A stretch of 64,000 bases of DNA. Source: Arthrobacter gandavensis. GTDB taxonomy: Bacteria; Actinomycetota; Actinomycetes; Actinomycetales; Micrococcaceae. Shown here in pieces: positions 12,708-30,371 of the stretch (positions within the stretch are counted from its first letter, which is position 1; every line of letters starts with the position of its first letter). The position numbers and the translations under genes were made by a program. The stretch is from NCBI RefSeq assembly GCF_009192735.1, contig NZ_VTFU01000001.1, positions 992,001 through 1,056,000 of the forward strand. The letters are read 5' to 3'. The notes under the pieces were generated by a model. The model was not told the DNA's origin. It did no database searches and saw only the letters and a list, made by a program, of their open reading frames with translations.

Positions 12708-13172
12708 ATGACTGAAGAAACCACCGGAACCGTCCCGGTACAAAAGACAGATGAGCAGTGGCGCGAGGAGCTGAGCCCGCAGGAATACCAGGTCCTCCGC
12801 AAGGCCGGAACCGAACGTCCCTACACCGGCGAATACTGGGACACCAAAACGGCAGGCGTTTACCAGTGCCGGGCCTGCGGCAGCGAGCTCTTCACCTCCA
12901 GCGAGAAGTTCGATTCCCACTGCGGCTGGCCGTCCTTCTTCGCCCCGCTGGCCGAGGGCAAGGTGCGTTACCTCCACGACCGCAGCATGGGCATGGACCG
13001 GATCGAAGTGCGCTGCGCCAACTGCGACTCGCACATGGGACACCTGTTCGAGGGCGAAGGTTTTGACACGCCCACCGATCAGCGTTTCTGCATCAACTCC
13101 ATCTCCGTGAAGCTGGTTCCCGCCGGGGACGGCGGGCAGGCCGACGGCGGACAGCCCGGCACTTCCAAGTAG
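12708..13172 (+). CDS. msrB: Peptide-methionine (R)-S-oxide reductase MsrB
   Basis: 154 residues. Two structural zinc CxxC pairs, CRACG and CANCD, the substrate motif CGWPSF, GH in SHMGHLFE, and the catalytic Cys128 in RFCINS are all present. It reduces methionine-R-sulfoxide in damaged proteins. The start ATG at 12708 lies 14 bp after the preceding gene and a flavin reductase follows 6 bp downstream, so the three genes probably form one operon with an oxidative-stress theme. Confidence 0.96.
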   Translation: MTEETTGTVPVQKTDEQWREELSPQEYQVLRKAGTERPYTGEYWDTKTAGVYQCRACGSELFTSSEKFDSHCGWPSFFAPLAEGKVRYLHDRSMGMDRIEVRCANCDSHMGHLFEGEGFDTPTDQRFCINSISVKLVPAGDGGQADGGQPGTSK

Positions 13173-13178
13173 GAGGAC

Positions 13179-13721
13179 ATGGAACACGGCGTATTTCCGG
13201 GCGAGGTTGTCCCTGCGGAGGTAACGGACGAGGCGGTCAACAGCTACCGCCTGCTCAGCGCCGACATCGCATCCGGAGTGGCTGTGGTATCCACACGGCT
13301 GCGCGGACGGGACTATGCGGCCACGGTCAGCGGTTTCCTTTCGGTATCGTATGACCCGCCCACGCTTCTGGTCAGCCTCTATGCCGAATCCCGGATAGCC
13401 GAGGCAGTGGTGGAAAGCGGCACCTGGGCGCTCAGCCTCCTCTCGGCCCGCCAGCGGGGTACCGCAAATTGGCTCGCCAGCCCGGGATCACCTTTGGAAG
13501 GACTCCTCACCCAGGTGGACTACGGGCGGGGACCGGTCACGGAAGCTGCGGTCATCGAGGGCTGCATTGCCTGGTTCGAGGTCCGCACCACCTCCGTCAC
13601 GACGGCGGCGACTCACCAGTTGGTGGTCGGTGAAGTGGTGGCCATGGGCCGCCGGGCCTCTGCGGAGGACGAAGCCGATCCACTGGTGCACTTCGCGTCG
13701 GCGTACTCCCGGCTGGGATAG
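13179..13721 (+). CDS. Flavin reductase-like domain protein (FMN-binding split barrel)
   Basis: 180 residues. The order GVAVVSTR...DYAATVSGFLSVSYDPPTLLVSL...SGTWALSLL...GCIAWFEVR...HQLVVGEVV is typical of the flavin reductase-like (HpaC/NTA monooxygenase component B) fold, with the T/S-x-S-F-x-S-V-S-x-D-P-P motif that holds FMN. It would reduce free flavin with NAD(P)H or bind FMN for another role. No flavin-dependent monooxygenase is adjacent. A strong terminator follows. Confidence 0.88.
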   Translation: MEHGVFPGEVVPAEVTDEAVNSYRLLSADIASGVAVVSTRLRGRDYAATVSGFLSVSYDPPTLLVSLYAESRIAEAVVESGTWALSLLSARQRGTANWLASPGSPLEGLLTQVDYGRGPVTEAAVIEGCIAWFEVRTTSVTTAATHQLVVGEVVAMGRRASAEDEADPLVHFASAYSRLG

Positions 13722-13799: not shown

Positions 13800-13944
13800 C
13801 GGCCCGGCTTTCCACTGCCACGGCTTGGCTTTCCACTGCCACTGTGCTGTGGGATCTCTATGACTTGGGTTGGGACTTCAATGACATGGGTTGGGACTTC
13901 AATGACTTGGGATGGAACTTCAGTGACTTGGAGTAGGACTTCAG
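13800..13944. repeat. 21-bp tandem repeats (two related blocks)
   Basis: Block 1: two 21-bp units, CGGCCCGGCTTTCCACTGCCA and its near copy, at 13800-13841. Block 2: four units of about TGACTTGGGTTGGGACTTCAA at 13861-13944, with 1-4 differences each. The 19 bp between the blocks look like a decayed unit. Because 21 is a multiple of three, both strands stay open and encode heptads (MTWVGTS on plus, VIEVPTQ on minus). The repeats fill most of the 423-bp gap between the flavin reductase gene and the EncFtn-like gene; no confident gene is in that gap. Confidence 0.85.
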
Positions 13945-14144
13945 TGACTTTGGCACCGGGCGGCGAGGGCGCCGCTCGTGCCATTGTCTCCCCGCCGGGC
14001 CAACCGTAACCTCGAACTACGGCGGGCGTAACGGAAAACCTGCATCATCCGGGGAAAACAGACAGCCCGGACAGCCCGGACATCGTCCGCCAAAGAGCGG
14101 GCTGCACCTTGGCCCGGAATTGCTGGCCGCACCAGGAGATACCC

Positions 14145-14525
14145 ATGGGCACAGAGCAGTACCACGAGCCACCATCCGAACTTCCCGCAGAAACCCGAAC
14201 CTTCGCCAGGATGTGCGCGAGTTTGAGCGAAGAAGCCGAGGCGATTGGCTGGTACGTCCAGCGCATAGCAGTGGAACCCGATGCCCAATCACGCGCCATC
14301 ATGCACGATTCCCTGGGTGAAGAGTTCAAGCATTTCAGCATGGAACTGGAGTTCCTGCTCCGCCGGACACCCCTGTGGAGGGAGATAGCCCGCGGCATCC
14401 TCTTCACCGACGGTGACATCGTGCAGCACGGTGAAGCATCCGAAGCCGCTGCAACGGGCGACGGCGACGGAAACAGCGACGGTGACGGGACCGCGGGAAG
14501 CGGCCCCGGAGTGTCCGGCAGATAG
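14145..14525 (+). CDS. EncFtn-type (encapsulated ferritin-like) protein, first gene of the V-ATPase operon
   Basis: 126 residues from ATG at 14145 with AGGAGA at 14134. Two helices carry Glu29, Glu30, Glu32, Trp36, Tyr37 and Glu59, Glu60, His63, followed by a GILFTD turn. From memory of the Rhodospirillum rubrum EncFtn (E31, E32, E34, W38, Y39, E61, E62, H65), every ligand is kept at a constant offset of two. EncFtn is a half-ferritin whose ring dimers build the ferroxidase centre and normally sits in an encapsulin shell. The last 30 residues are a Gly/Asp/Ser linker ending GPGVSGR, like the linker before a cargo-loading peptide, but no LxxGSL motif is seen. The next gene, 68 bp away, is V-ATPase subunit G; no terminator is obvious between them. 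Confidence 0.8.
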   Translation: MGTEQYHEPPSELPAETRTFARMCASLSEEAEAIGWYVQRIAVEPDAQSRAIMHDSLGEEFKHFSMELEFLLRRTPLWREIARGILFTDGDIVQHGEASEAAATGDGDGNSDGDGTAGSGPGVSGR

Positions 14526-14593: not shown

Positions 14594-15031
14594 ATGGCAC
14601 GCAACAGCTTGCTCGACAGGTTCCGGCCCGTAGGGTCCCCCGGACCGGCCGGCCCTGCCGGTGTTCCGGCAGCAGACAATCAGGGTCCCGAAGCCGAACT
14701 CGTTCCGGTTTTTGAGGCACTGGATCCAACGATCAACCAGACACAGGATTTGATCGACGACGCAAAACAGCGGGCGGAAGAGACAGTGCGGCAGGCACGC
14801 GCGCGGGCCGCAGCGGAGGTTGAGCATGCACGGCTGGAAAGCGGCGCGGTTCGTGCCCGTGCAGCGGCAGAGGTAGCCAGCAAAGCCGAGGCCGCCGATT
14901 CGGAACTGCTGCTGAACGCAGAGAATGAAGCGGCGGAGCTGAAGAGTCGGGGCGAATCCAGGGTTCCCGAACTGGCAGCGGCCATCGTGGCGGATCTGGT
15001 GCAGGACCTGCTCGGAAACACGAACCCATGA
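14594..15031 (+). CDS. V/A-type ATPase peripheral stalk subunit G/H-like
   Basis: 145 residues, with a strong GAGGAGGTG Shine-Dalgarno before ATG at 14594. After a Pro/Gly-rich first 35 residues comes a long Ala/Glu/Arg coiled coil (residues about 50-125, e.g. DDAKQRAEETVRQARARAAA). This is the layout of the G (AtpH) stator subunit, which pairs with subunit E. A Pro-rich N terminus is unusual for the family. The end overlaps the next gene by 4 bp (ATGA). Assignment rests on shape and operon position, since G subunits have little sequence conservation. Confidence 0.75.
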   Translation: MARNSLLDRFRPVGSPGPAGPAGVPAADNQGPEAELVPVFEALDPTINQTQDLIDDAKQRAEETVRQARARAAAEVEHARLESGAVRARAAAEVASKAEAADSELLLNAENEAAELKSRGESRVPELAAAIVADLVQDLLGNTNP

Positions 15032-15952
15032 GATCCGACTGGGTGGCGGCATCGGTACGGGCCCGGTCCATGGCGCAGCGCCGGGCCGGCGCCGGGACCT
15101 GCCGCACGATTGCTGCAACACCTGGGTTGGAGGCGGCCCTTTCCCAGCTCGCTGACACGGTGTACGGCAGGGAACTGAAGTCCGCACAGACGCTGTCCCA
15201 GGCACACCGGGCAACCCGGAGAACCGTCCTGTGGCAGCTGCGCGTGCTGGCGGGATGGCTTCCCGCCGGAGGAACCCGCCTCATCCGGGCCGCCGCGGCG
15301 GTCTTCGAGGCCGACAACATCCTTGCCCTGGATCTTCGTCTCCGCGGGGAGGAGACCAGCGCCCCCTCAGCTTTTGACCTTGGCGGCCTGGCAACGGCAT
15401 GGCCGCGCCTCCAGACGGCAGCAACTGATGAGGAGCTGCGGGCGGCACTTGCCTCGTCACCGTGGGGCGATCCCGGACCGGAGTCCGCCCTTCGGGACAT
15501 TCTTACGGCCGTGTGGCTCCGCCGGCTGACCTCCGAGGCAGCAGCGGTGCGGCCCTGGGCGGCAGCGGCAGCGGCTCTGATTGCCGCCAGGCTGGTGTTG
15601 GTGGACGGAACAGCTCCGGCACCCCGGCTGGCCAGTTTGCTCCGCCCCCTGCTGGGCACCGGCTGGACGGCTGCAGGCACCGGAGAACTTCCCACCCCGG
15701 AACTGCTGCGCAGCACTTTGCCTCCGGCCGCCGCACAGGCCATGAACGGGGTGGACCGCACAGCTGACCTGTGGCGGGCCGAAGCGGCACTGGCCGCACG
15801 CATCGAAAACGACGGGTTCGGCTTGCTCCGGGCCGGACTTCCCGGACCGGATGTGGTCCTTGGTGCCATGGCGGTACTCGCCGCCGATGCCTGGCGGGTC
15901 CGCGCAGCACTGGCCTCGGCCGCTGTGTCCGCCGGAACGAGCGAGGTGCTGG

Positions 15953-15966
<14 letters not shown>
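15028..15966 (+). CDS. atpC: V/A-type ATPase subunit C (AC39/d)
   Basis: 312 residues, Ala-rich and mostly helical, consistent with the funnel-shaped subunit C that links the central stalk to the c ring. Conserved-type features include the N-terminal segment SVRARSMAQRR and the repeated WLRRLTSEAAAV-like helices; no catalytic motif is expected. Starts inside the previous gene (ATGA) and its last 14 bp overlap the start of subunit I. Sequence is diverged, so the call leans on operon order and size (usual family length 320-360). Confidence 0.72.
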
Positions 15967-18022
<2,056 letters not shown>

Positions 18023-18023
<1 letters not shown>

Positions 18024-18550
18024 TGAACCGACTGCCCGCCGGATCAGATGCCGCCCTTGAAGCCGTCCGTTATGCGCTGCGCCGGCAGGCAGAGTCTGAG
18101 GCAGGCCGCCTGGCCGCGGACGCCCGTCACCAGGCCGAAACGCTGCTCTCCAACGCCGGCACGGAAGCCGCGGAAATCCGGGCAGAGGCAGCACGGCAGG
18201 GAGCCGAAGCAGCACGCACGGAAGCTGCGGGCCGTTCGGCCCGCGTCCGCCGGGAAGCACGGCGCACCGTCCTGGCGCAGCAGGAAACGCTGCGGTCCGA
18301 ACTGCTCCGCCAGGTCCTGGAGCGGACCCGGGACCTGCGCAGCGACCCGCGGTATCCGCAGCTGCTTCGGCGCCTCACCGAGCGTGCTGACGCGCTCCTG
18401 GGGCCGTTGGCATCCGTGACGGAAAGCTACAAGGGCGGCGTCACCGGCACGGCCGGATCCCGCCACCTGGACCTCTCCCTTCCCGCGCTGGCGAAACAGG
18501 CCATGGAAAGCCGCGCCGGGGAGGTGCACCGTTTATGGGACGACAAATAG
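18023..18550 (+). CDS. atpE: V/A-type ATPase peripheral stalk subunit E
   Basis: 175 residues. N-terminal Ala/Glu/Arg coiled coil (residues about 10-95) and a C-terminal globular part with RDLRSDPRYPQLLRRLTERA, the segment that docks on the A3B3 head in family members. Together with the G-like protein it would form the stator. Its 3' end overlaps the subunit A start by 16 bp, the longest overlap in the operon. Confidence 0.85.
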
Positions 18551-20451
18551 GTGGAAACGGCGCAGCACGCGGGACCATCACCCGGGTCAGCGGGCCGCTG
18601 GTCGAAATCACCGGACTGTCCGGGCTCTCCATGCTGGAAGTCGTGGCGGTGGGCCCCGACCGGATCTCGGCCCAGGCCGTCGCCGTCAACGGTGAGGACG
18701 CCACCCTGCAGGCCTACGAGTACACCGGCGGGTTGAAGGTCGGCGACACCGTGGAGCGCACCGGACACGAATTGTCCGGACTGCTGGGCCCGGGGCTGCT
18801 GGGCTCTGTCTTTGACGGACTGCTCCGCCCGCTGTCCTCCGCTCCCCTGTGGCTGGCCCAGGACCGGATGTCCTCCACCGAGGACCCGTCGGTCCTGAAC
18901 ACCGCATGGGGGTTCACGCCGTCGGTGTCGGTGGGCGATACGGTGCGGGCGGGGCAGGTCCTCGGCACCGTGCCGGAAGCAGGGGCGGTGGAGTTCCGGG
19001 TAATGGTGCCGCCACACGTTGCCGGCGAGGTCCAATGGCTGGCACACGGCCCCCTTCATCCGCTGGATCCGGTGGCGCGGGTGGGCGGCACCGACGTTCC
19101 GCTGGCCCAGCAGTGGCCCGTGCACCGGCCCCGGCCCTTCGGCGAGCGCCTGACCGACACCGTGCCGCTGAACACCGGCCAACGGGTCCTGGATCTGCTC
19201 TTCCCGCTCCCCCGCGGTTCGGCAGCGGCTGTTCCGGGTGGCTTCGGGACGGGCAAGACGCTGACCCTCCAACAGATTGCCAAGTGGTCCGACGCGGACG
19301 TCATTGTCTACGTGGGCTGCGGCGAGCGCGGCAACGAGATGGCCGACGTCTTGGACGGCCTCTCCGGACTGGACGATCCCCGGACCGGCGGCAAGCTGAT
19401 CGACCGGACCGTGATTATCGCCAACACCTCCAACATGCCGATGATGGCCCGGGAGGCGTCCATTGCCACCGGCGTCACGGTGGCGGAGTTCTTCCGCGAC
19501 ATGGGGTACGACGCCGTCGTCATTGCCGACTCGACCTCCCGCTGGGCCGAAGCGCTGCGCGAGTTCGCCAACCGCAACGGGGACCTCCCCGCCGAGGAGG
19601 GCTATCCGGCATCCCTGGCCAGTGAGCTGGCCGCCTTCTATGAGCGTGCGGCGCTCGTTCAGACCCTGGGTGGTGCGACGGCGTCGGTCACCGTGATTGG
19701 GGCGGTCTCCCCACCCGGCGGAGACATGAGCGAACCGGTTACCACCGACACCCAGCGCTTTGTGCGTTCGCTGTGGATCCTCGACCGGGATCTGGCGTAC
19801 TCCCGGCACTATCCGGCCGTCAGCTGGCGCGGCTCCTTCTCGCGCGATGCCGAGACGCTGGGCCGCTGGCATTCCGCGCACGGGGATCCGCTCTGGGCAC
19901 AGCGCCGGGCATCGGCGTCCCTTCTCCTGTCCGAAGCGGACCGGCTGACGGCCCTGGCGGAGATCATCGGGACCGCATCCCTGCCCGGGCACGAGCGGAT
20001 GGTGCTGCTGGGCGGGCGTCTGGTGCGTGACGGTGTCCTGCTGCAAAACGCCCTGAGTCCCAATGACGGTTACAGTTCCCGGGAAAAGGGTGCCGCTCTG
20101 CTGCAGACGGTCCTGGATGTGGTGGATGTGTGCCAGTCACTGGTCAACCGCGGAGTGCCGGCCGAGGACATCGAACGCTTCGACTTCACCCCGGTGCTGC
20201 GGCTGCGCGAAGACACCGGCCCCACCGACGCCGAGGGCGTGCTCTCGCGGGGACGGGAATTCCTGGCCCGGCTGCGGCAGGTGGACGACGGCGGGATCGA
20301 ACGCGGAAGGGACGACACTGCGGGGGCGGACGGCGGCGGTGGGGATTTGTCGGCGGCGGGCGCCCATGCCGGCGGAGCCTATACCGGTGGACAAGCCCAA
20401 ACCAAAGGACAAGCCCACGCCGGTAATCAGTCGGAAAGAGGGCCCGCATGA
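18535..20451 (+). CDS. atpA: V/A-type ATPase catalytic subunit A
   Basis: 638 residues. Walker A is GGFGTGKT with Lys241, catalytic region GERGNEM with Glu264, Walker B-like VVIADSTSRWAEALRE, and the phosphate loop region GAVSPPGGDMSEP. The V-type non-homologous insert (about residues 120-190) is present, separating it from F-type beta. It hydrolyses or makes ATP in the A3B3 head. The last 55 residues form an unusual Gly/Ala/Gln/Asp-rich tail absent from typical A subunits. ATGA overlap with subunit B. Confidence 0.97.
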   Translation: MGRQIGGNGAARGTITRVSGPLVEITGLSGLSMLEVVAVGPDRISAQAVAVNGEDATLQAYEYTGGLKVGDTVERTGHELSGLLGPGLLGSVFDGLLRPLSSAPLWLAQDRMSSTEDPSVLNTAWGFTPSVSVGDTVRAGQVLGTVPEAGAVEFRVMVPPHVAGEVQWLAHGPLHPLDPVARVGGTDVPLAQQWPVHRPRPFGERLTDTVPLNTGQRVLDLLFPLPRGSAAAVPGGFGTGKTLTLQQIAKWSDADVIVYVGCGERGNEMADVLDGLSGLDDPRTGGKLIDRTVIIANTSNMPMMAREASIATGVTVAEFFRDMGYDAVVIADSTSRWAEALREFANRNGDLPAEEGYPASLASELAAFYERAALVQTLGGATASVTVIGAVSPPGGDMSEPVTTDTQRFVRSLWILDRDLAYSRHYPAVSWRGSFSRDAETLGRWHSAHGDPLWAQRRASASLLLSEADRLTALAEIIGTASLPGHERMVLLGGRLVRDGVLLQNALSPNDGYSSREKGAALLQTVLDVVDVCQSLVNRGVPAEDIERFDFTPVLRLREDTGPTDAEGVLSRGREFLARLRQVDDGGIERGRDDTAGADGGGGDLSAAGAHAGGAYTGGQAQTKGQAHAGNQSERGPA

Positions 20452-21890
20452 GCACTGACGATGCCACCAGTCCCGGCACGGAATCCGTGCCCTCCACGTC
20501 ACCCCGGGTCGGCTACAGAGGGGTGCGCGAATTGCGCGGTCCCCTGCTGGTCCTCGGCGACGCGGAGGGAGTGGGCTGGGACGAGTTCGCCACGGTCGGG
20601 GTGGCCGGGCAGCGGGACCGGCACGGACTGGTGCTGGAGGTGGACGGAGATGAAGTAACCCTGCAGGTCCTTGAAGGGACCGGAGGAATGTCGCTGGGCG
20701 GCATCGAAGTCCGGTTCCAGGGGCGGCCGCTGGCGGTTCCCACCGGCCTTGGCTGGCTTGGCCGGGTTTGCAACGGGCGGGGAGAACCGCTCGACGGCGG
20801 CCCGCCGATCACCGCCGGACAGACGGCCCCCGTGGGCGGCTGGCCGCTGAACCCGGTGTACCGCGAACCGCCGCAGGATCCGGTGATTACGGGCATCTCA
20901 GCCGTGGACGCCCTGACCACGCTGGTGCGGGGACAGAAACTCCCCATCTTCTCCGTTCCCGGCCTGCCACACCTGACCCTGGCCACTCAGATCGCCGCCC
21001 AGGCCACCACATCTTCGGGACGGGCCTTCCGGGTGGTGTTTGCCGCCATGGGGATGACGCACGCCGACATTGCCTACATCCGCGACCGGCTGGAGGAACG
21101 CTCCGCGGCGGGTGAGCTGGTCCTGCTGCTCAACGCCGCTGATGATCCGGTGATCGAACGCATCCTCACTCCGCGGATTGCCCTCACCGTCGCTGAATCC
21201 CTGGCCTACGACGAGGGCACGGACGTCCTGGTGGTGATGTCGGACATGACCAGCTATGCCGAGGCAGTGCGGGAAGTTTCCGCGGCACGGCGGGAAATCC
21301 CGGCCCGGCGTGGATACCCCGGTTATCTGTACAGCGACTTGGCCGGTCTCTACGAACGGTGCGGCCGCGTCCGGGGCCGGGAGGGTTCCGTCACCATTGT
21401 TCCCGTGCTGACCATGCCTGCCGGAGACATCACCCATCCGGTTCCGGACCTGACCGGTTACATCACCGAGGGGCAGGTGGTCCTCGACCCGGACGTCGAC
21501 GCGCGGGGCATCTACCCGCCGGTGGATGTGCTGTCGTCGCTGTCCCGCCTGATGCGCAGCGGCGCCGGAAAGGGGCGCACCCGCGAAGACCACCTGGATG
21601 TTGCGGCGCAGATTCTATCGGCCATGGCTCGGGCACGGTCCGCCGCGGAACTGGCCGAGCTCGTGGGAACCGCGGCATTGAGCGAGACAGACAACGCCTA
21701 CATTGAGTTCAGGTCCGTGGTGGAGCGAAACCTGCTCAGCCAGGGCCGGGATGAGCTGCGCACTTTCGACCAGACCATGGACCTCGCCTGGCAGGCCCTG
21801 TCGCTGCTGCCGCGGCGGGAACTGACCATGCTCTCCGGTGAGTTCCTGGACAAGTACCTGCCGGGTCCGATTGGCGGGGCACGGCTGTGA
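20448..21890 (+). CDS. atpB: V/A-type ATPase non-catalytic subunit B
   Basis: 480 residues. The family's degenerate nucleotide site SVPGLPHLTLATQIA replaces a P-loop; MGMTHADIAYIRDRLE, VVMSDMTSYAEAVREVS and the PGYLYSDLAGLYERCGR block are all typical of V-type B. A Ser/Thr/Pro N-terminal tail of about 20 residues precedes the beta barrel. It alternates with subunit A in the head. GTG of subunit D overlaps its stop. Confidence 0.97.
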   Translation: MSTDDATSPGTESVPSTSPRVGYRGVRELRGPLLVLGDAEGVGWDEFATVGVAGQRDRHGLVLEVDGDEVTLQVLEGTGGMSLGGIEVRFQGRPLAVPTGLGWLGRVCNGRGEPLDGGPPITAGQTAPVGGWPLNPVYREPPQDPVITGISAVDALTTLVRGQKLPIFSVPGLPHLTLATQIAAQATTSSGRAFRVVFAAMGMTHADIAYIRDRLEERSAAGELVLLLNAADDPVIERILTPRIALTVAESLAYDEGTDVLVVMSDMTSYAEAVREVSAARREIPARRGYPGYLYSDLAGLYERCGRVRGREGSVTIVPVLTMPAGDITHPVPDLTGYITEGQVVLDPDVDARGIYPPVDVLSSLSRLMRSGAGKGRTREDHLDVAAQILSAMARARSAAELAELVGTAALSETDNAYIEFRSVVERNLLSQGRDELRTFDQTMDLAWQALSLLPRRELTMLSGEFLDKYLPGPIGGARL

Positions 21891-22486
21891 GCGGGTTCCG
21901 GAGCGGCGGCAGCCGAGCGGATCGGGCCGATGTGGAGCGCCGGCTGGCAACCGCCACCCGCGGTGCCGAGCTGTTGGACCGTAAACAGCGCATACTGCAG
22001 CGTGCCATTGAAGGGCTGCGGGAAAAGGCAGACTCAGCCCGGGAAGCGTGGGAAGATCAGGCCGCGGTGGCTGCGGTGTGGCTGCAGCGCAGTGCCGGCT
22101 TGGACGGGGAGGACCGAATCAATGCTTCGGTTCCCGCAGACACCGCCGTGGCAGAGGTTCAATGGGGCGGAGCAATGGGGATCTCCTACCCCGAAGCAGC
22201 GCGGTGCGTGCTTCCCGCCGCTTTTCCGTCCGGAGGAAGCTCTGCCCTTGCGTACGCGGCATCCACCCACCGGGCAGCACTTGAGACCGCTGTTACTGCG
22301 GCGGGCGCCGCCCGGGCACTGCTGCTGGTGTCCGGGGAACTGGATGCCACCCGCACCCGGCAACGGGCAGTGGAGAACCGCTGGATTCCCCTGCTGCAGG
22401 AGCAGCTGGACGGGATTAAGCGCAAGGTCGCCGAGCAGGAACTCGAAGAGAGCCTGCGGCTGCGCTGGTCCGCCGGGATCCTCTAA
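21887..22486 (+). CDS. atpD: V/A-type ATPase central shaft subunit D
   Basis: 199 residues from GTG at 21887. Long N- and C-terminal helices: ELLDRKQRILQRAIEGLREK near the start and VENRWIPLLQEQLDGIKRKV near the end, the antiparallel coiled coil of the rotor shaft (family motif LLKxKRdaL and RvNALE-like). It is the last gene of the operon; the convergent SDR gene ends 13 bp later, so the transcript must stop within or beyond it. Confidence 0.93.
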   Translation: MSGFRSGGSRADRADVERRLATATRGAELLDRKQRILQRAIEGLREKADSAREAWEDQAAVAAVWLQRSAGLDGEDRINASVPADTAVAEVQWGGAMGISYPEAARCVLPAAFPSGGSSALAYAASTHRAALETAVTAAGAARALLLVSGELDATRTRQRAVENRWIPLLQEQLDGIKRKVAEQELEESLRLRWSAGIL

Positions 22487-24584: not shown

Positions 24585-25631
24585 ATGGAGCGCGAAATCT
24601 GTCCCATGGAAAATCCCCCGGCGGCTCCACGCCGTCGAAAAACCCTCATCAGCGTTGCCGCCGCCGCTTTGATCCTGACCGGTTGCAGCGTCGGGACGCC
24701 GGTGGACCGCGACAGCGTTGAAGAGGTGGACCCCAACGCCAAAACCCTCCGGCTGGCCCACGTGTACGACTCGAGTCACCCGGTGGAGGAATGCGGCGTC
24801 GCCACCATGAAAGAGGAGCTGCAGGGCAGCGGCCTCCAGCTCCAGAGCTTCCCGTCCGCGCAGCTTGGCAACGAGTCCGAACTGCTGGAGCAGGTCGGAT
24901 CGGGCAGTTTGGACATGGCCGTGGCCGGCCCGTCCTTCCTCGGCGTCTGGGAAGAGAACGCAGCGGTCCTGGATGCGGCCTATCTGTTCGAGGACGTGGA
25001 CCACTTTGTGGACACCGCCAACGGCGAAGAGATGGCAGCTGTTTTCGACGATTTGTACGAGTCCTCCGACATTAAGGTGCTTTCGAACTGGTACTACGGA
25101 ACCCGCCACGTCACGGCCAACAAGGAAATCAGCACCGCCGAGGACTTCGCCGGACTGAAGATCCGCACCCCCAACGCGCCGCTCTACTTGGCCAATATCA
25201 GCGCCATGGGTGGAACAGCGACACCGATGGCACTTGACGAGGTGTACCTGGCACTGCAGCAAGGCGTTATCGACGCCCAGGAAAACCCCATTCCCACCAT
25301 CGCCACAGCTAAGTTCAATGAAGTCCAGGACTACATCAACCTCACCGGCCACATGATTCAGGGCGTGGAAATCACCACGGGCCGGGCCGTGTATGAAGGC
25401 CTGTCCGACGACGAACGCACGGCGCTGGAGGAGGCAGTGCAGAAGGGCGCCGATGCCACCCGCGAGTGCGTCGAGGAGCAGGAAGAATCCGTCCTCGCGG
25501 AGTGGAAGGCCGGCAGCGGCATTCAGGTCAACGAGAACGTGGACCGGGATTCCCTGGCTGCGGCAGCCGGGGAAGCCATGCGCAGCCAGCCCTGGGGCGA
25601 CCTCTACGAGCAGATCCAGGCAAACCGGTGA
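24585..25631 (+). CDS. dctP: TRAP transporter substrate-binding lipoprotein (DctP type)
   Basis: 348 residues from ATG at 24585 (GGAAGGA 7 bp upstream). A Lys/Arg-rich start, hydrophobic AAAALILTGC lipobox with Cys at about residue 33. The DctP pattern follows: LRLAHVYDSSHPVEE, SFPSAQLGNESELLEQVGSG, and FAGLKIRTPNAPLY containing the family Arg that binds the ligand carboxylate. ALDEVYLALQQGVIDAQENP is the typical lid segment. It captures an acidic solute outside the membrane for the DctQM pair encoded next. Overlaps dctQ by 4 bp (GTGA). Confidence 0.94.
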   Translation: MEREICPMENPPAAPRRRKTLISVAAAALILTGCSVGTPVDRDSVEEVDPNAKTLRLAHVYDSSHPVEECGVATMKEELQGSGLQLQSFPSAQLGNESELLEQVGSGSLDMAVAGPSFLGVWEENAAVLDAAYLFEDVDHFVDTANGEEMAAVFDDLYESSDIKVLSNWYYGTRHVTANKEISTAEDFAGLKIRTPNAPLYLANISAMGGTATPMALDEVYLALQQGVIDAQENPIPTIATAKFNEVQDYINLTGHMIQGVEITTGRAVYEGLSDDERTALEEAVQKGADATRECVEEQEESVLAEWKAGSGIQVNENVDRDSLAAAAGEAMRSQPWGDLYEQIQANR

Positions 25632-26242
25632 CCGGGGCCGCCGGCGAACAGCCGGCTTCCGGCAGCGAGAACAACCTTGCCACCGGACTGCGGGTCCCCC
25701 AGGAGCCGGACGACCCGGACTTCCCGGAGCAGCTCAGCCGCGTCTACCACTACATCGTGAACGTGGAGAGGATCGCGGCGTGTTCCTTCCTCGTGGCAAC
25801 CCTGGGATTGATCATCCTGCAGGTCATCAGCCGCTACATCTTTAATGCCCCGCTGACATGGACCGAAGAACTCGCACGCTTCGCCCTCCTGTGGTTCACC
25901 TTTGTGTCCGCCGGATTCGTGATGGCCCGGCGGGTCCATATCGCCGTGGACATCGTCGCCAGCAAACTGGGGCGCACCGGAACCGTGGTGCTGGACACCT
26001 TCGCGCTGGGGATGGTGATCATCGCCTCCGCAACCATGGCCTTCGCCGGCGCGGAGTTCGCCGCCTCGGCGGCGCGCCTGAGTGCTCCCGCGACGTCGCT
26101 GCCCATGAGCCTGGTCTACAGCTCCGCAGTGGTGGGGTTCGGGCTGATCTGTTTCCACGCCGTCGTCCACCTCTACCTCAACATCCGCCATCCGGAACTT
26201 GTCCCGGATGCGATGGAAAACCTTGAGCGGGAAGCTGTCTAG
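25628..26242 (+). CDS. dctQ: TRAP transporter small permease (DctQ type)
   Basis: 204 residues from GTG at 25628, with a Pro/Glu/Asp-rich cytoplasmic N terminus of about 45 residues and four membrane helices. SRYIFNAPLTWTEELARFAL is the DctQ signature loop between helices 1 and 2, and MARRVHIAVDIV follows helix 2. Works with DctM in sodium-driven uptake. Confidence 0.93.
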   Translation: MTGAAGEQPASGSENNLATGLRVPQEPDDPDFPEQLSRVYHYIVNVERIAACSFLVATLGLIILQVISRYIFNAPLTWTEELARFALLWFTFVSAGFVMARRVHIAVDIVASKLGRTGTVVLDTFALGMVIIASATMAFAGAEFAASAARLSAPATSLPMSLVYSSAVVGFGLICFHAVVHLYLNIRHPELVPDAMENLEREAV

Positions 26243-26251
26243 GAGCCGGTC

Positions 26252-27532
26252 ATGACTCTACTCATCATGGTGGTCAGCCTGCTGCTGCTCCTGGCCCTGC
26301 GCGTTCCCGTCTCCTTTGCGCTCCTGATCCCGTCCCTCGGATATGTCGTCACGGACCCGACCGTCCGGCTCGGCACAGCCGTGCAGCAGACCGTTTCGGG
26401 CGTCGACAGCTTTTCCATTCTGGCCGTGCCCATGTTCATCCTGCTGGGAAACCTGGCGAACGTCTCCGGCGTCACCGACAAGCTCTACGACGCCGCGGTG
26501 GCCGCCATTGGCCATCTCCGGGGAAGCCTGGGCTACGTCAACGTGGCCACCAGCTTTGGGTTTTCCTGGATGAGCGGCGCGGCCATCGCCGACGCCGCGG
26601 CGATGGGCCGCGTGCAGGTTCCGGCCATGGTGAAACGCGGGTACAAGCGTGAATTCGCGCTGGGCGTCACCGGAGCGTCGAGCCTGATTGCCCCCATGAT
26701 CCCGCCCAGCATTCCCGCCGTCATTTATGCGGTGACGGCGGGAGTGTCAGTGGGAGCGCTGTTCATGGCGGGCATCGTGCCGGCCCTGATCCTGGTGGCG
26801 GCCCTGTGCCTCACCGTATGGATTTCCATGCGGAAGCGAAATGAACTCCGGCTGCCGAAGGCAACGTGGGGAACCCGCGGCAAGACAGCGCTCAGTGCCG
26901 TACCGGCGCTTGGCTCGGCAGTGGTCATCCTGGGCGGCATCCTCAGCGGAATCTTCACGCCCACCGAAGCCAGCGGCATCGGCGTCGTCTACATTGCGCT
27001 GCTGGCCGTGATCTACAAGGCGCTGACCTGGCGGAAGATGTACCGTACGCTGCTCACAACGGTGGAGACTTCCGGATCGGTTCTCCTGATTGTTGCGGCC
27101 GCGGCGCTGTTTGGCTGGGTCCTGGCCAGGGAACAGGCGCCGCAGGTGGCCGCAAACCTCATCCTGGACATCACGAATCAGCCCATCATGTTCCTGATCC
27201 TCGTCAATGTGCTGCTCCTGCTCGTGGGATGCGTGCTGGAGCCGACAGCCGCAATCCTCATCCTCGTGCCGGTGCTCCTCCCGGTCGCGGAAACCTTCGG
27301 CATCGACCCCGTCCACTTCGGCATCATGGTGATCTTCAACCTCCTCATCGGGCTGATCACCCCGCCGGTCGGTTTGGTCCTGTTTGTCCTCTCCAGCGTG
27401 ACCAAGGCCCCGGTCCCGGTGGTCATCAGGGGCATCCTGCCGTTTTTCGGGCCCATGGTGGTGACCCTGCTCTTCGTCAGCTTTGTTCCGGCCGTAACGC
27501 TGGCACTGCCGACGCTTCTCGGCTTCCTCTAA
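26252..27532 (+). CDS. dctM: TRAP transporter large permease (DctM type)
   Basis: 426 residues with about 12 membrane helices. Typical DctM segments: FILLGNLANVSGVTDKLYD, SWMSGAAIADAAAMGRV, APMIPPSIPAVIYA and LIGLITPPVGLVLFV. It forms the ion-coupled translocation path. Shine-Dalgarno TAGGAG lies just before ATG. Genes for an acid-sugar dehydratase and dehydrogenase follow, so the cargo is probably an aldonate. Confidence 0.95.
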   Translation: MTLLIMVVSLLLLLALRVPVSFALLIPSLGYVVTDPTVRLGTAVQQTVSGVDSFSILAVPMFILLGNLANVSGVTDKLYDAAVAAIGHLRGSLGYVNVATSFGFSWMSGAAIADAAAMGRVQVPAMVKRGYKREFALGVTGASSLIAPMIPPSIPAVIYAVTAGVSVGALFMAGIVPALILVAALCLTVWISMRKRNELRLPKATWGTRGKTALSAVPALGSAVVILGGILSGIFTPTEASGIGVVYIALLAVIYKALTWRKMYRTLLTTVETSGSVLLIVAAAALFGWVLAREQAPQVAANLILDITNQPIMFLILVNVLLLLVGCVLEPTAAILILVPVLLPVAETFGIDPVHFGIMVIFNLLIGLITPPVGLVLFVLSSVTKAPVPVVIRGILPFFGPMVVTLLFVSFVPAVTLALPTLLGFL

Positions 27533-27562
27533 CCCGCCCCGTGAACCCGCAAGGAACAGCTC

Positions 27563-28867
27563 ATGTCAAAAATTGAATCCGTCACCACCACTGACGTCCG
27601 CTTTCCCACCTCGCTGGAGCTGGACGGCTCGGACGCCGTCAACGTCGATCCCGACTACTCGGCTGCCTACGTGGAGATCAGCACCGACGACGGCGAAAGC
27701 GGCTACGGCTTTGTTTTCACCTGCGGCAGGGGAAACGAGATCGTCACCGCCGCCATGGACAGCTACGGCGAACTGCTGGTGGGCCGGGACACCGACGAAC
27801 TTGTCTACAACCTTGGAGACTCCTCCCGCCGGCTCATCCACGACTCCCAAATGCGCTGGCTCGGCCCAGAGAAGGGCGTGTCCCACATGGCATGCGGCGC
27901 GCTGGTGAATGCACTGTGGGACATCAGGGCACGGCGGGAGAAAAAAACGCTGTGGCTGCTGCTGAGCGAGATGGATACCGACGAAATCATCAGCGCCGTG
28001 GACTTCACGCATATCCGCAACGCATTGACTCCCGAAGATGCCGCCGACATTCTGCGGAAGGGGCATACCGGCCGGGACGAGCGCATCGCCGAACTCAAGC
28101 GGTTTGGCTACCCGGCCTACACCACCACACCCGGATGGCTCGGCTACAGCGACGAAAAACTCGTGCGGCTCGCCAGGGAGGCGGTCGCCGACGGCTTCGG
28201 CATGATCAAGCTCAAGGTCGCGGGAAGCATCGAAGATGACCGGCGCCGCCTGTCCCTGGCACGCGAAGCGGTGGGGCCGGACGTCCGGATCGCCATTGAC
28301 GCCAACCAGCGCTGGGAGGAGCAGGAGGCCATTGACTGGGTCAACCAGCTGCAGGATTTCCGTCCGTACTGGATCGAGGAGCCCACCAGCACCGATGACA
28401 TCCTCGCCCACGCAGCCATCCGCCGGGCCGTCCATCCCATCAAGGTGGTCACCGGTGAGGCTGTCCACAACCGGATCATCTTCAAGCAAATGCTCCAGGC
28501 GGGAGCCATCGACATCATGCAGATCGATTCGACGCGGGCAGCAGGCGTCAACGAGAACATCGCCAACCTGCTGCTGGCCGCCCGCTTCGAGACACCAGTC
28601 TGCCCGCACGCCGGCGGCGTCGGACTCTGCGAACTCGTGCAGCACTTTTCCTTCTTCGACTACGCCGCCGTCACCGGCACCATGGAAGACCGCGTCATTG
28701 AGTACGTCGACCACCTGCACGAACATTTCACCGAACCGGCAGTCATCTCCAACGGGCGCTACCAGGCACCGAAGCTTCCGGGCATCGGCGCCGAAATGCT
28801 CCCCGAATCCACCTCCCGCTGGTCCTACCCCGGCGGCGCCGTATGGCAGGAACTGAACAACCGCTGA
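27563..28867 (+). CDS. L-fuconate dehydratase-type enolase superfamily enzyme
   Basis: 434 residues. Mandelate-racemase-group active site: K216/K218 in IKLKV, D246 in IDANQRW, E272 in WIEEPTS, E299 in TGEAVHN and H349 in CPHAGG. From memory, Xanthomonas FucD uses K220, D248, E274, E301 and H351, so all five keep the same offset of two, which supports fuconate dehydratase strongly. FucD turns L-fuconate into 2-keto-3-deoxy-L-fuconate and also accepts D-arabinonate, which has the same C2-C4 configuration. Follows the TRAP genes by 30 bp. Confidence 0.88.
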   Translation: MSKIESVTTTDVRFPTSLELDGSDAVNVDPDYSAAYVEISTDDGESGYGFVFTCGRGNEIVTAAMDSYGELLVGRDTDELVYNLGDSSRRLIHDSQMRWLGPEKGVSHMACGALVNALWDIRARREKKTLWLLLSEMDTDEIISAVDFTHIRNALTPEDAADILRKGHTGRDERIAELKRFGYPAYTTTPGWLGYSDEKLVRLAREAVADGFGMIKLKVAGSIEDDRRRLSLAREAVGPDVRIAIDANQRWEEQEAIDWVNQLQDFRPYWIEEPTSTDDILAHAAIRRAVHPIKVVTGEAVHNRIIFKQMLQAGAIDIMQIDSTRAAGVNENIANLLLAARFETPVCPHAGGVGLCELVQHFSFFDYAAVTGTMEDRVIEYVDHLHEHFTEPAVISNGRYQAPKLPGIGAEMLPESTSRWSYPGGAVWQELNNR

Positions 28868-28883
28868 TAATCCGGAGGAATCC

Positions 28884-30371
28884 ATGAGCACCACCACCCC
28901 AACCGTCGCCACCACACCTGAACAGGTGGACCTCGCCGCCCAAGAGGCGCACGCCGCGTTCCTGCGCATCGCAGATGAAACGCCCTCCGCACGTGCGGCA
29001 CGGCTGAACACCATTGCCGACGCCCTCCGCGGCCATGCCGGGGAATTGGTAACCCTTGCCGCCGCTGACACGAACCTCGCCGAAACCCGGCTCCAGGGCG
29101 AACTGCAGCGGTCCGCCTTCCAGCTGGATCTGTTCGCGGAGGAGGTGCGCACCGGCGTTGCCCTGGATGCCACGATCGACCATGCGGATCCTGACTGGGG
29201 CATGGGACCCCGTCCGGACATCCGCAGGGTCAATGTCCCGCTGGGGGTTGTTGGCGTCTTCGGAGCGTCCAATTTCCCGTTTGCCTTCAGCGTCATGGGC
29301 GGAGACAGCGCTTCAGCCCTCGCCGCCGGGTGCGCCGTCCTGCACAAGATCCACCCGGGCCACCAGAACCTGGCCCTGCGGACCGGGGAAATAGTTGCCT
29401 CGGCCCTGGCCGCGGCAGGTGATCCAGCCGGTTTGTTCTCCCTGGTGGACGGGCGTTCCGCCGCAGAGGCCCTGGTGGATCACCCGCTCGTCCGTGCCAT
29501 CGGATTCACCGGTTCAACAGTGGGCGGACGGGAACTCTTCAACCGTGCGAGCGCCCGGCCGGTGCCGATCCCTTTTTACGGGGAATTAGGCAGCATCAAC
29601 CCTGTCTTCGTCCTCCCGGAGGCCTGGGACTCCCGGGCTGAGGAAATCCTCTCCGGATTTGCCGGCTCCTTCACCATGGGCATGGGGCAGTTCTGCACGA
29701 AGCCCGGAGTCCTTTTCGTTCCGGATTCCGCGTCGGAGGAGCAGCTGCGCACCGGGCTGGGGTCCGCCCTTGGACAGGCTCCCCTGGCAAAGCTGCTCAC
29801 CCCGGGGCTGCGCGAATCGTTCGGCAAAGCCCTGGAGGAGGTGGCTTCCTTCGATGGAGTGCAGCCCCTGGTGCCCGGAACGGATGACGAGGTTCCCTCC
29901 CCCACCGTTCTGCTGGTGGATGCCCGGACCGCGGCATCGGATCCGGGGGTGCTGCAGCGGGAGATGTTCGGACCGGCAACCGTGGTGGTCCGCTACCACG
30001 ACGTCGCTGACCTTCCCTCGCTCGCGGAAAGCATGGAGGGCCAGCTGACGGCCACCATCCACGCCGACGCCGGGGATTCCACGGGTGCACTGCTGTCCGC
30101 CCTCACGGGAATTGCGGGCCGGGTGCTGTGGAACGGATGGCCCACCGGAGTCACGGTCTCCTACGCACAGCAGCACGGCGGCCCCTATCCGGCCACCACC
30201 GCACCTGGAACAACATCCGTCGGCACAGCGGCCATCGGCCGGTTCATGCGGCCGGTCGCTTATCAGGACGTTCCCGACGACGCGCTTCCGCCGGCATTGC
30301 AGGAGTCCAACCCCTGGTCCATAGCCCGCAGGGTTGACGGAGTCTTTATCCCTGCAGGAGAGGCCCAGTGA
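28884..30371 (+). CDS. Aldehyde dehydrogenase, alpha-ketoglutarate-semialdehyde type
   Basis: 495 residues. Catalytic Cys271 in GMGQFCTKPG, Glu in PFYGELGSINPVF, cofactor segment VGVFGASNFPFAFSVMGGD and NGWPTGVTVSYAQQHGGPYPAT near the end place it with the NADP-dependent KGSADH group rather than with general ALDHs. KGSADH oxidises 2-oxoglutarate semialdehyde to 2-oxoglutarate at the end of non-phosphorylative pentose or aldarate routes. GGAGG lies before ATG at 28884; the stop shares a base with the next start. Confidence 0.87.
   Translation: MSTTTPTVATTPEQVDLAAQEAHAAFLRIADETPSARAARLNTIADALRGHAGELVTLAAADTNLAETRLQGELQRSAFQLDLFAEEVRTGVALDATIDHADPDWGMGPRPDIRRVNVPLGVVGVFGASNFPFAFSVMGGDSASALAAGCAVLHKIHPGHQNLALRTGEIVASALAAAGDPAGLFSLVDGRSAAEALVDHPLVRAIGFTGSTVGGRELFNRASARPVPIPFYGELGSINPVFVLPEAWDSRAEEILSGFAGSFTMGMGQFCTKPGVLFVPDSASEEQLRTGLGSALGQAPLAKLLTPGLRESFGKALEEVASFDGVQPLVPGTDDEVPSPTVLLVDARTAASDPGVLQREMFGPATVVVRYHDVADLPSLAESMEGQLTATIHADAGDSTGALLSALTGIAGRVLWNGWPTGVTVSYAQQHGGPYPATTAPGTTSVGTAAIGRFMRPVAYQDVPDDALPPALQESNPWSIARRVDGVFIPAGEAQ

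What the first reader, a model, noticed from the sequence alone, without database searches (positions are those of the whole stretch)
14486..14525. Flexible Gly/Asp tail on the ferritin-like protein may be a decayed or unusual loading peptide
EncFtn proteins end with a linker and a short peptide that binds the encapsulin shell. Here the linker (GDGDGNSDGDG...) is kept but the end reads GPGVSGR, without the usual LxxGSL pattern. Either the shell partner uses another motif or the protein works outside a shell.
Basis: partly seen in the sequence, partly recalled or inferred. Interest (0 to 1): 0.5.

Follow-up and report, generated by a model that had tools for sequence, protein, structure and literature searches.

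The report
Shell-free encapsulin-type ferritin in Arthrobacter
This small, probably iron-oxidising protein belongs to a family usually packed inside a protein shell, but here no shell gene and no address tag were found, and its odd glycine/aspartate end looks like a recent repeat-made extension rather than a worn-out tag.

Summary
The tail is real: the EncFtn-like protein (14145-14525, +) ends GDGDGNSDGDGTAGSGPGVSGR, without LxxGSL. It is not a decayed loading peptide. In the window's genus (Arthrobacter in the strict sense) 26 of 29 genomes carry the gene and 0 carry a PF04454 encapsulin. Of these 26 proteins, 18 end at 106-107 residues with no linker or peptide; seven, the window's included, have extensions of differing length and letters. 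Of 123 distinct relatives, 67 of 68 with a shell gene next door end in an LGIGSL-type peptide, against 0 of 55 without. The di-iron ligands are kept and the core is under purifying selection. Best reading: a cytosolic shell-free EncFtn ferroxidase, like the short class (s-FLP, such as NE0167) whose encapsulation a 2024 review calls unclear. New here: it leads a V/A-ATPase operon in 24 of 29 genomes, behind a promoter-like element (13982-14015) kept in 28 of 29 even where EncFtn or the ATPase is missing. Whether the two work together is unknown.

The parts
14145..14525 (+). EncFtn-like (shell-free) probable ferroxidase gene, 126 aa; predicted helices 15-43, 47-74, 76-85, 92-104; predicted ligands E29/E30/E32, Y37, E60, H63 (Rru_A0973 E31/E32/E34, Y39, E62, H65)
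   Evidence: PF22277 69 bits; AlphaFold2 mean pLDDT 85; Foldseek 5n5f/3k6c/5da5; ligand columns
14457..14525 (+). C-terminal extension (residues 105-126) plus stop; no loading-peptide motif; predicted disordered
   Evidence: pLDDT under 50 for residues 108-124
14457..14488 (+). imperfect GGCGAC hexanucleotide repeat (5.3 copies, 73% matches, score 36, weak) coding the Gly/Asp run
13982..14015 (+). promoter-like element CATTGT-N17-CGTAACCTCGA, conserved upstream of EncFtn/ATPase in the genus
   Evidence: 1 match in the window, 0 in 100 shuffles; 28 of 29 genus loci, 0 of 24 other loci; motif was derived from these loci
14594..15031 (+). first V/A-ATPase gene downstream, G/H-like stalk subunit (weak match), 68 bp after the EncFtn stop
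   Evidence: PF03179 E=0.0024, under cut-off; spacing
15028..22486 (+). rest of the V/A-ATPase operon: C/d-like (15028-15966, weak), I (about 15881-17293), K (17290-17751), F-like (17748-18023, weak), E-like (18023-18550, weak), A (18535-20451), B (20448-21890), D (21887-22486)
12708..13172 (+). upstream msrB (methionine sulfoxide reductase B), found at this place in the window and all 28 genus loci examined
   Evidence: PF01641; synteny
13179..13721 (+). upstream flavin reductase-like gene, at this place in some but not all genus loci
   Evidence: PF01613; synteny

Best explanation
The gene encodes a shell-free, encapsulin-type ferritin (EncFtn) that most likely works in the cytosol as a ring-shaped di-iron ferroxidase, not as encapsulin cargo. 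Shown: the EncFtn core and its metal ligands are intact and under purifying selection; no encapsulin was found in the genome or genus; the orthologues have no loading peptide; the tail is a variable extension, coded here by a weak repeat. Inferred: the protein assembles into EncFtn-type decamers, oxidises Fe(II) and passes Fe(III) on (for example to the genome's own ferritin or Dps-like protein), since EncFtn alone does not mineralise iron (PMC5012862 abstract). The tail is read as a dispensable disordered end. The gene is probably co-transcribed with the V/A-ATPase genes from a shared promoter, but a shared function is not shown.
For: Genus: EncFtn in 26 of 29, encapsulin in 0 of 29, V-ATPase D subunit in 27 of 29 genomes. 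Own genome: no PF04454 or PF19307 match; two PF00210 proteins, one ferritin and one that reads as Dps-like. Tails: of 26 genus proteins 18 end at 106-107 aa, 7 have extensions (111-126 aa) and one (L063) has a broken 5' part with the short end. Shell/peptide concordance: 67 of 68 distinct proteins with a shell gene next door carry the peptide, 0 of 55 without; within it, the phylum sample gives 8 of 8 against 0 of 12 by whole-genome search (not independent). Core dN/dS about 0.06 over 25 genes. E29, E30, W36, Y37, E60 and H63 are invariant in 84 of 84 aligned proteins, E32 in 79. Tree: the genus copies are one side of a branch (98/89) and join six shell-free copies of other genera (99/90).
Against: Ferroxidase activity and the decamer rest on homology only. 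Six of the seven extended tails end alike ([AVT][SP]G[GRS]; L046 ends GAG), so some constraint, or only shared descent, cannot be excluded. The assembly has 12 contigs, so absence of a shell gene is not strictly proven, and shell families 3 and 4 were not searched. pS of 0.55 is near saturation, so dN/dS is rough. Three genus genomes lack the gene, one with a remnant, so it is dispensable there.
Confidence: 0.78

Rival explanations
1. Decayed loading peptide: the Arthrobacter protein was recently encapsulin cargo, the shell gene was lost, and the tail is the worn linker and peptide.
For: Peptide-bearing, shell-linked EncFtn exist in other genera of the family; a far older loss of the peptide is possible, since the tree needs few changes between shell-linked and shell-free (6 on the full tree; 3 after leaving out three rows).
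Against: The shell-free relatives nearest to the genus, and its branches outside the 19-row cluster (koreensis, citreus, luteolus, gallicola types), end at 104-107 aa without any linker, so the window tail most simply lies beyond the ancestral end; its letters differ between close strains.
Confidence: 0.07
2. Unusual sorting or docking peptide: the Gly/Asp tail binds something else, for example the V/A-ATPase, another compartment or the membrane.
For: Six of the seven extended tails end in a similar short pattern.
Against: 18 of 26 orthologues lack it although 16 of those 18 sit before the same ATPase; residues 108-124 have pLDDT under 50; the Gly/Asp run is coded by a simple, weak repeat.
Confidence: 0.07
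3. The protein is a working part or helper of the V/A-ATPase (assembly, iron or redox protection), which is why it leads the operon.
For: 24 of 29 genus genomes have EncFtn 4 to 146 bp before the first ATPase gene, same strand; a promoter-like element upstream is kept in 28 of 29 genus loci, also in those that lack one partner.
Against: Two genomes keep EncFtn without the ATPase and three keep the ATPase without EncFtn, one with a remnant; ten ATPase loci of other genera in the family show no EncFtn-type hit (L090 begins at a contig edge), and of those ten genomes only G052 has any EncFtn, elsewhere and with a shell; shell-free EncFtn in other genera have no recurrent neighbour.
Confidence: 0.17
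4. A shell exists but was missed: outside the assembly, or of an unrelated kind.
For: The assembly has 12 contigs; shell families 3 and 4 were not searched; the PF19307 search rang in 1 of 14 control genomes and not over its cut-off.
Against: Completeness 100; 0 of 29 genus genomes have PF04454, eleven of them single-contig.
Confidence: 0.04

Closest known systems
Rru_A0973 EncFtn, Rhodospirillum rubrum (PDB 5da5), FLP-TP class
   Same: fold (Foldseek TMt about 0.9, about 40% identity over the core), ferroxidase ligands in register
   Different: Rru has a linker, a SLGIGSLK(R) peptide and an encapsulin partner (passages of PMC11202242 and PMC5012862); here neither peptide nor shell was found
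NE0167, Nitrosomonas europaea (PDB 3k6c), s-FLP class
   Same: EncFtn fold without targeting peptide (PMC11202242 passage)
   Different: 37-38% identity only; the putative s-FLP peptide LFTD(E/N)KPIAHE lies in a segment that here is shared with shell-linked, peptide-bearing relatives; the window protein carries an added tail of about 20 residues
EncFtn plus encapsulin pairs of other Micrococcaceae, Microbacteriaceae and Solirubrobacterales (for example L162, L120, L122)
   Same: close sequence relatives, 58-71% identity to the window protein among the shell-linked rows
   Different: end in LGIGSL-type peptides beside an encapsulin gene

Membership tests
EncFtn-like family (PF22277) | profile match over the curated cut-off | tested here: met
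   69.1 bits against 27
EncFtn-like family (PF22277) | E-E-x-E, W-Y and E-x-x-H metal-ligand pattern | tested here: met
   E29 E30 E32 W36 Y37 E60 H63; ligand roles from passages of PMC5012862, Trp as site residue recalled
EncFtn-like family (PF22277) | fold as in 5da5 | tested here: met
   predicted model only
EncFtn-like family (PF22277) | annular decamer and ferroxidase activity | not testable with these tools
   inferred from homology
Encapsulated ferritin (FLP-TP, TIGR04535) | C-terminal targeting peptide | tested here: not met
   no LGIGSL-like end
Encapsulated ferritin (FLP-TP, TIGR04535) | encapsulin partner in the genome | tested here: not met
   no PF04454 or PF19307 match; shell families 3 and 4 not searched
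Encapsulated ferritin (FLP-TP, TIGR04535) | TIGR04535 curated cut-off | tested here: not met
   77.2 against 125 bits
s-FLP (short EncFtn) | no targeting peptide | tested here: met
s-FLP (short EncFtn) | no long disordered C-terminus | tested here: inconclusive
   18 of 26 genus orthologues end at 106-107 aa; the window protein itself has about 20 disordered residues

The most novel reading that the evidence does not exclude
Short EncFtn proteins form a widespread class that has left the encapsulin shell and acts as free cytosolic ferroxidase rings; in Arthrobacter one such ring has been recruited as the leading gene of a V/A-ATPase operon, under a shared promoter, and links iron or redox state to the pump.
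Probability: 0.15. Interest if true: 0.6.

Novelty: new variant of a known kind. Interest (0 to 1): 0.36.

Why it matters
A 2024 review (PMC11202242, passages read) says that short EncFtn proteins were first classed as non-encapsulated and that it is unclear whether they carry a hidden shell-binding sequence. The concordance found here (peptide where a shell gene is, none where it is not) suggests that in the Actinomycetota sampled they mostly have no shell to enter, and it points to culturable Arthrobacter strains, some with and some without the gene, in which a shell-free EncFtn can be tested directly. The V/A-ATPase linkage gives a first genomic lead to its physiology.

Tried and rejected
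Looked for a shell in the own genome (families 1 and 2) and in the genus (family 1): no match. Looked for a conserved neighbour of shell-free EncFtn in 20 loci outside the ATPase setting (family names for 20 chosen neighbours): no neighbour family recurred in more than two loci. A Na/Ca exchanger in two Cryobacterium loci (named on L138; L115 by similarity), a molybdopterin oxidoreductase in two loci (named on L172; L173 by similarity), a ClC channel and a cytochrome oxidase subunit in single loci are taken as chance. Tried to show that all shell-free copies are one clade: not shown, not rejected (AU p 0.40; L130, L152 and L154 left out there). Modelling the tail in a shell pocket was dropped because no shell was found. 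One search's shell column is wrong (its query held an out-of-frame stretch) and was replaced. Counts hold duplicate genomes; one search is the count of distinct proteins. Seven hits were dropped by its motif filter: L130 (Skermania, SLDIGGL tail, no shell next door but a shell gene elsewhere in its genome) and six distant ferritin-like rows. Its one exception (L016, A. mobilis) holds a run of N, and the reading frame runs on into the shell gene. L152 runs off its contig and was not counted. In the report check I looked again at the upstream alignment, found a conserved block that I had first passed over, and tested it; for this I raised the ATPase-helper rival from 0.15 to 0.17.

Full report
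What is there. The gene at 14145-14525 (+) encodes a 126-aa protein (the longest reading frame listed starts earlier, at a TTG at 14109; the ATG at 14145 is the start shared by the genus). It matches PF22277 EncFtn-like with 69 bits (cut-off 27), and TIGR04535, the NCBI model for encapsulin-associated ferritin-like proteins, with only 77 bits (cut-off 125). In the PDB its sequence relatives include Rru_A0973, H. ochraceum EncFtn and NE0167. An AlphaFold2 model from 84 rows has mean pLDDT 85 with a confident core and residues 108-124 under 50; Foldseek returns chains of 5n5f, 3k6c and Rru_A0973 entries first, TM about 0.9 by target length. The residues that bind metal in Rru_A0973 (passages of PMC5012862: Glu32, Glu62, His65, Tyr39, entry site Glu31/Glu34) fall on E30, E60, H63, Y37, E29 and E32; all but E32 are the same in 84 of 84 aligned proteins, E32 in 79. 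Trp38 as a site residue is recalled; its column (W36) is invariant.

The tail. Residues 105-126 read GDGDGNSDGDGTAGSGPGVSGR (14457-14522). A weak GGCGAC tandem repeat covers 14457-14488 (score 36, 73% matches). In the 26 genus genomes with the gene, 18 proteins end at 106-107 aa (..EASEAEATGD..EASEAAATQDE and the like), seven have extensions to 111-126 aa that differ in length and letters (window, L044, L046, L050, L054, L060, L061), and one (L063) has a broken 5' part but the short end. Six of the seven extended tails end in SGG, SGR, SGS or PGG, which may be shared descent or weak constraint. The 14 shell-free rows of other genera in the 84-row alignment are all 104 or 105 aa long; of four further ones outside it, L115 and L116 end alike, L150 is 2 and L160 9 residues longer at the end. 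So the tail most simply lies beyond the end of the ordinary protein; it is not a retained linker.

Is there a shell? No PF04454 and no PF19307 match in the own genome (the PF19307 search rang in only 1 of its 14 control genomes and below its cut-off, so it is weakly controlled). In 395 genomes of the family, 53 have an EncFtn hit (52 over the cut-off), 40 an encapsulin hit (39 over) and 38 a V-ATPase D hit (37 over). In the window's genus (29 genomes) the numbers are 26, 0 and 27. Of the 27 EncFtn genomes outside the genus, 25 have an encapsulin hit (one, G056, a fragment); G015 and the doubtful G381 do not. Names come from a scan of genome contigs (413 relatives, the best 80 kept) and equal contig lengths: the genus group holds Arthrobacter koreensis, citreus, luteolus, gallicola, pullicola and zhaoxinii. 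Other records named Arthrobacter (A. crystallopoietes, A. mangrovi, A. rhombi) lie in other genus groups of the family and do have shell and peptide, so the statement holds for the genus in the strict sense only.

Peptide and shell go together. Of the EncFtn-type proteins in the loci held, 124 are distinct after a motif filter and 123 have a stop: shell gene next door (within 1.5 kb, same strand) and peptide 67; neither 55; shell but no peptide 1 (L016, a record with a run of N); peptide without shell next door 0. 'Peptide' there means a match to L-[GDR]-I-[GR]-[GSD]-[LMK]. Seven hits were dropped by the filter; one of them, L130 from Skermania, has a peptide-like tail, no shell next door, and a shell gene elsewhere in its genome. 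Of 17 genomes with a shell-free copy outside the genus searched whole, 13 have no encapsulin match and 4 have one (G760, G763, G771 and a fragment in G766); five of the 13 are MAGs and may be incomplete, and some of the 17 are genomes already in the family sample. A phylum draw of 296 genomes gave 54 with PF22277 hits; I tested the 20 best apart from the own genome: 8 have an encapsulin and all 8 EncFtn tails carry a peptide-like end (L202 reads SLGIGGK, L187 LRIGSL, L191 LGIGDL), 12 have none and 0 of 12 tails carry one. These proteins are also among those. Three of the 12 (L195, L196, L203) are short and distant and may not be EncFtn proper. The 33 weaker hits were not tested. An order draw of 396 genomes gave 9 hits; its five new ones fit too (four with shell and peptide, L173 with neither).

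Selection and descent. Over 25 genus genes (L063 left out) the first 102 codons give pS 0.55, pN 0.062, dN/dS about 0.06: not a decaying gene, though pS is near saturation. In a 94-row tree on the core alone (tail left out), the genus copies form one side of a branch (98/89) inside a set of 31 shell-free rows (99/90) with copies from Subtercola, a Cryobacterium, a Paenarthrobacter record and MAGs; a second cluster of shell-free copies (Leifsonia, Glaciibacter, Cryobacterium, Tersicoccus and others) lies apart and also holds two shell-linked Occultella rows (99/98). One clade for all shell-free copies is not rejected (AU p 0.40). Position 28, just before the metal ligands, is S or A in 35 of 36 shell-free rows and T in 41 of 48 shell-linked rows.

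Surroundings. In 24 of 29 genus genomes the gene stands between msrB (often with a flavin reductase gene after it) and a V/A-ATPase operon, 4 to 146 bp before the first ATPase gene (one of the 24, L063, has a broken EncFtn; in L048 the contig ends within the D gene). Two genomes (G080, G183) keep EncFtn at the same place without the ATPase; three (G058, G306, G312) keep the ATPase without EncFtn, G306 with a truncated remnant. An element CATTGT-N17/18-CGTANNNTCGA lies upstream in 28 of 29 genus loci (the other, L046, has the CGTANNNTCGA half), including the five that lack one of the two partners, and in 0 of 24 ATPase or shell-free EncFtn loci of other genera; in the window it is at 13982-14015, once, with none in 100 shuffles. 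The motif was taken from these same loci, so the genus count is no independent test, but the sequence around it varies much more. It looks like a promoter that serves whichever gene comes first; that is inference. Ten ATPase loci from other genera of the family show no EncFtn-type hit (L090 begins at a contig edge, and an eleventh genome with only a weak partial hit, G190, was not fetched). The genome also has an F-type ATP synthase a subunit, and two PF00210 proteins, one a classical ferritin by sequence and one Dps-like by eye.

How it most likely works. EncFtn alone is an active ferroxidase that cannot mineralise iron (abstract of PMC5012862). Without a shell, this protein probably oxidises ferrous iron in the cytosol and hands ferric iron on, to ferritin, Dps or another sink; msrB and flavin reductase nearby fit a redox-stress setting. 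These steps are inferred. Shared upstream element and short spacing suggest co-expression with the ATPase, but absence of either partner without the other argues against a strict functional pair.

Literature. PMC11202242 (passages and parts of its reference list read, not the whole text) describes four classes of encapsulated ferritin-like proteins, among them s-FLPs without targeting peptide, 'initially classified as non-encapsulated' with reference to Giessen and Silver 2017 (not read), and calls it unclear whether their short end holds a binding sequence; it lists a putative s-FLP peptide LFTD(E/N)KPIAHE. The equivalent segment (ILFTDGDIVQHGE here) has a counterpart in peptide-bearing relatives (for example VLFRDGDIVEHGE in L012), which speaks against it being a shell-binding signal. 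Of PMC5012862 I saw the abstract and passages, of PMC4571993 two passages. Searches: EncFtn with V-type ATPase gave no paper; encapsulin with Arthrobacter and ferritin-like, V-type ATPase with Arthrobacter and operon, and searches gave listings in which no title or abstract start names this gene arrangement. Preprints and most subscription journals were not searchable.

Noticed in passing
window 13860-13950: 21-bp tandem repeat (4.3 copies, 87% matches, unit ATGACTTGGGTTGGGACTTCA) in the gap upstream of the EncFtn gene.
   Followed up: no
window 14594-22486: V/A-type ATPase operon in an actinobacterium that also has an F-type ATP synthase; D subunit in 27 of 29 genus genomes but 38 of 395 family genomes. 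Several subunits match their Pfam models only weakly.
   Followed up: partly
L067 4175-4507 (+): Truncated EncFtn remnant directly before the ATPase genes in G306; no EncFtn hit in L066 and L068.
   Followed up: partly
L041, L042, L052 between msrB and EncFtn: Inverted repeat followed by a T run, terminator-like, just upstream of EncFtn and overlapping the CGTANNNTCGA element (seen by eye in the alignment).
   Followed up: no
alignment A2, column of window residue 28: S/A in shell-free against T in shell-linked EncFtn, next to the metal ligands.
   Followed up: no
window 24585-30371 (+): Reading frames that look like a TRAP-type transporter, an enolase-superfamily enzyme and an aldehyde dehydrogenase, a likely sugar-acid use cluster (by eye, no family search).
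   Followed up: no
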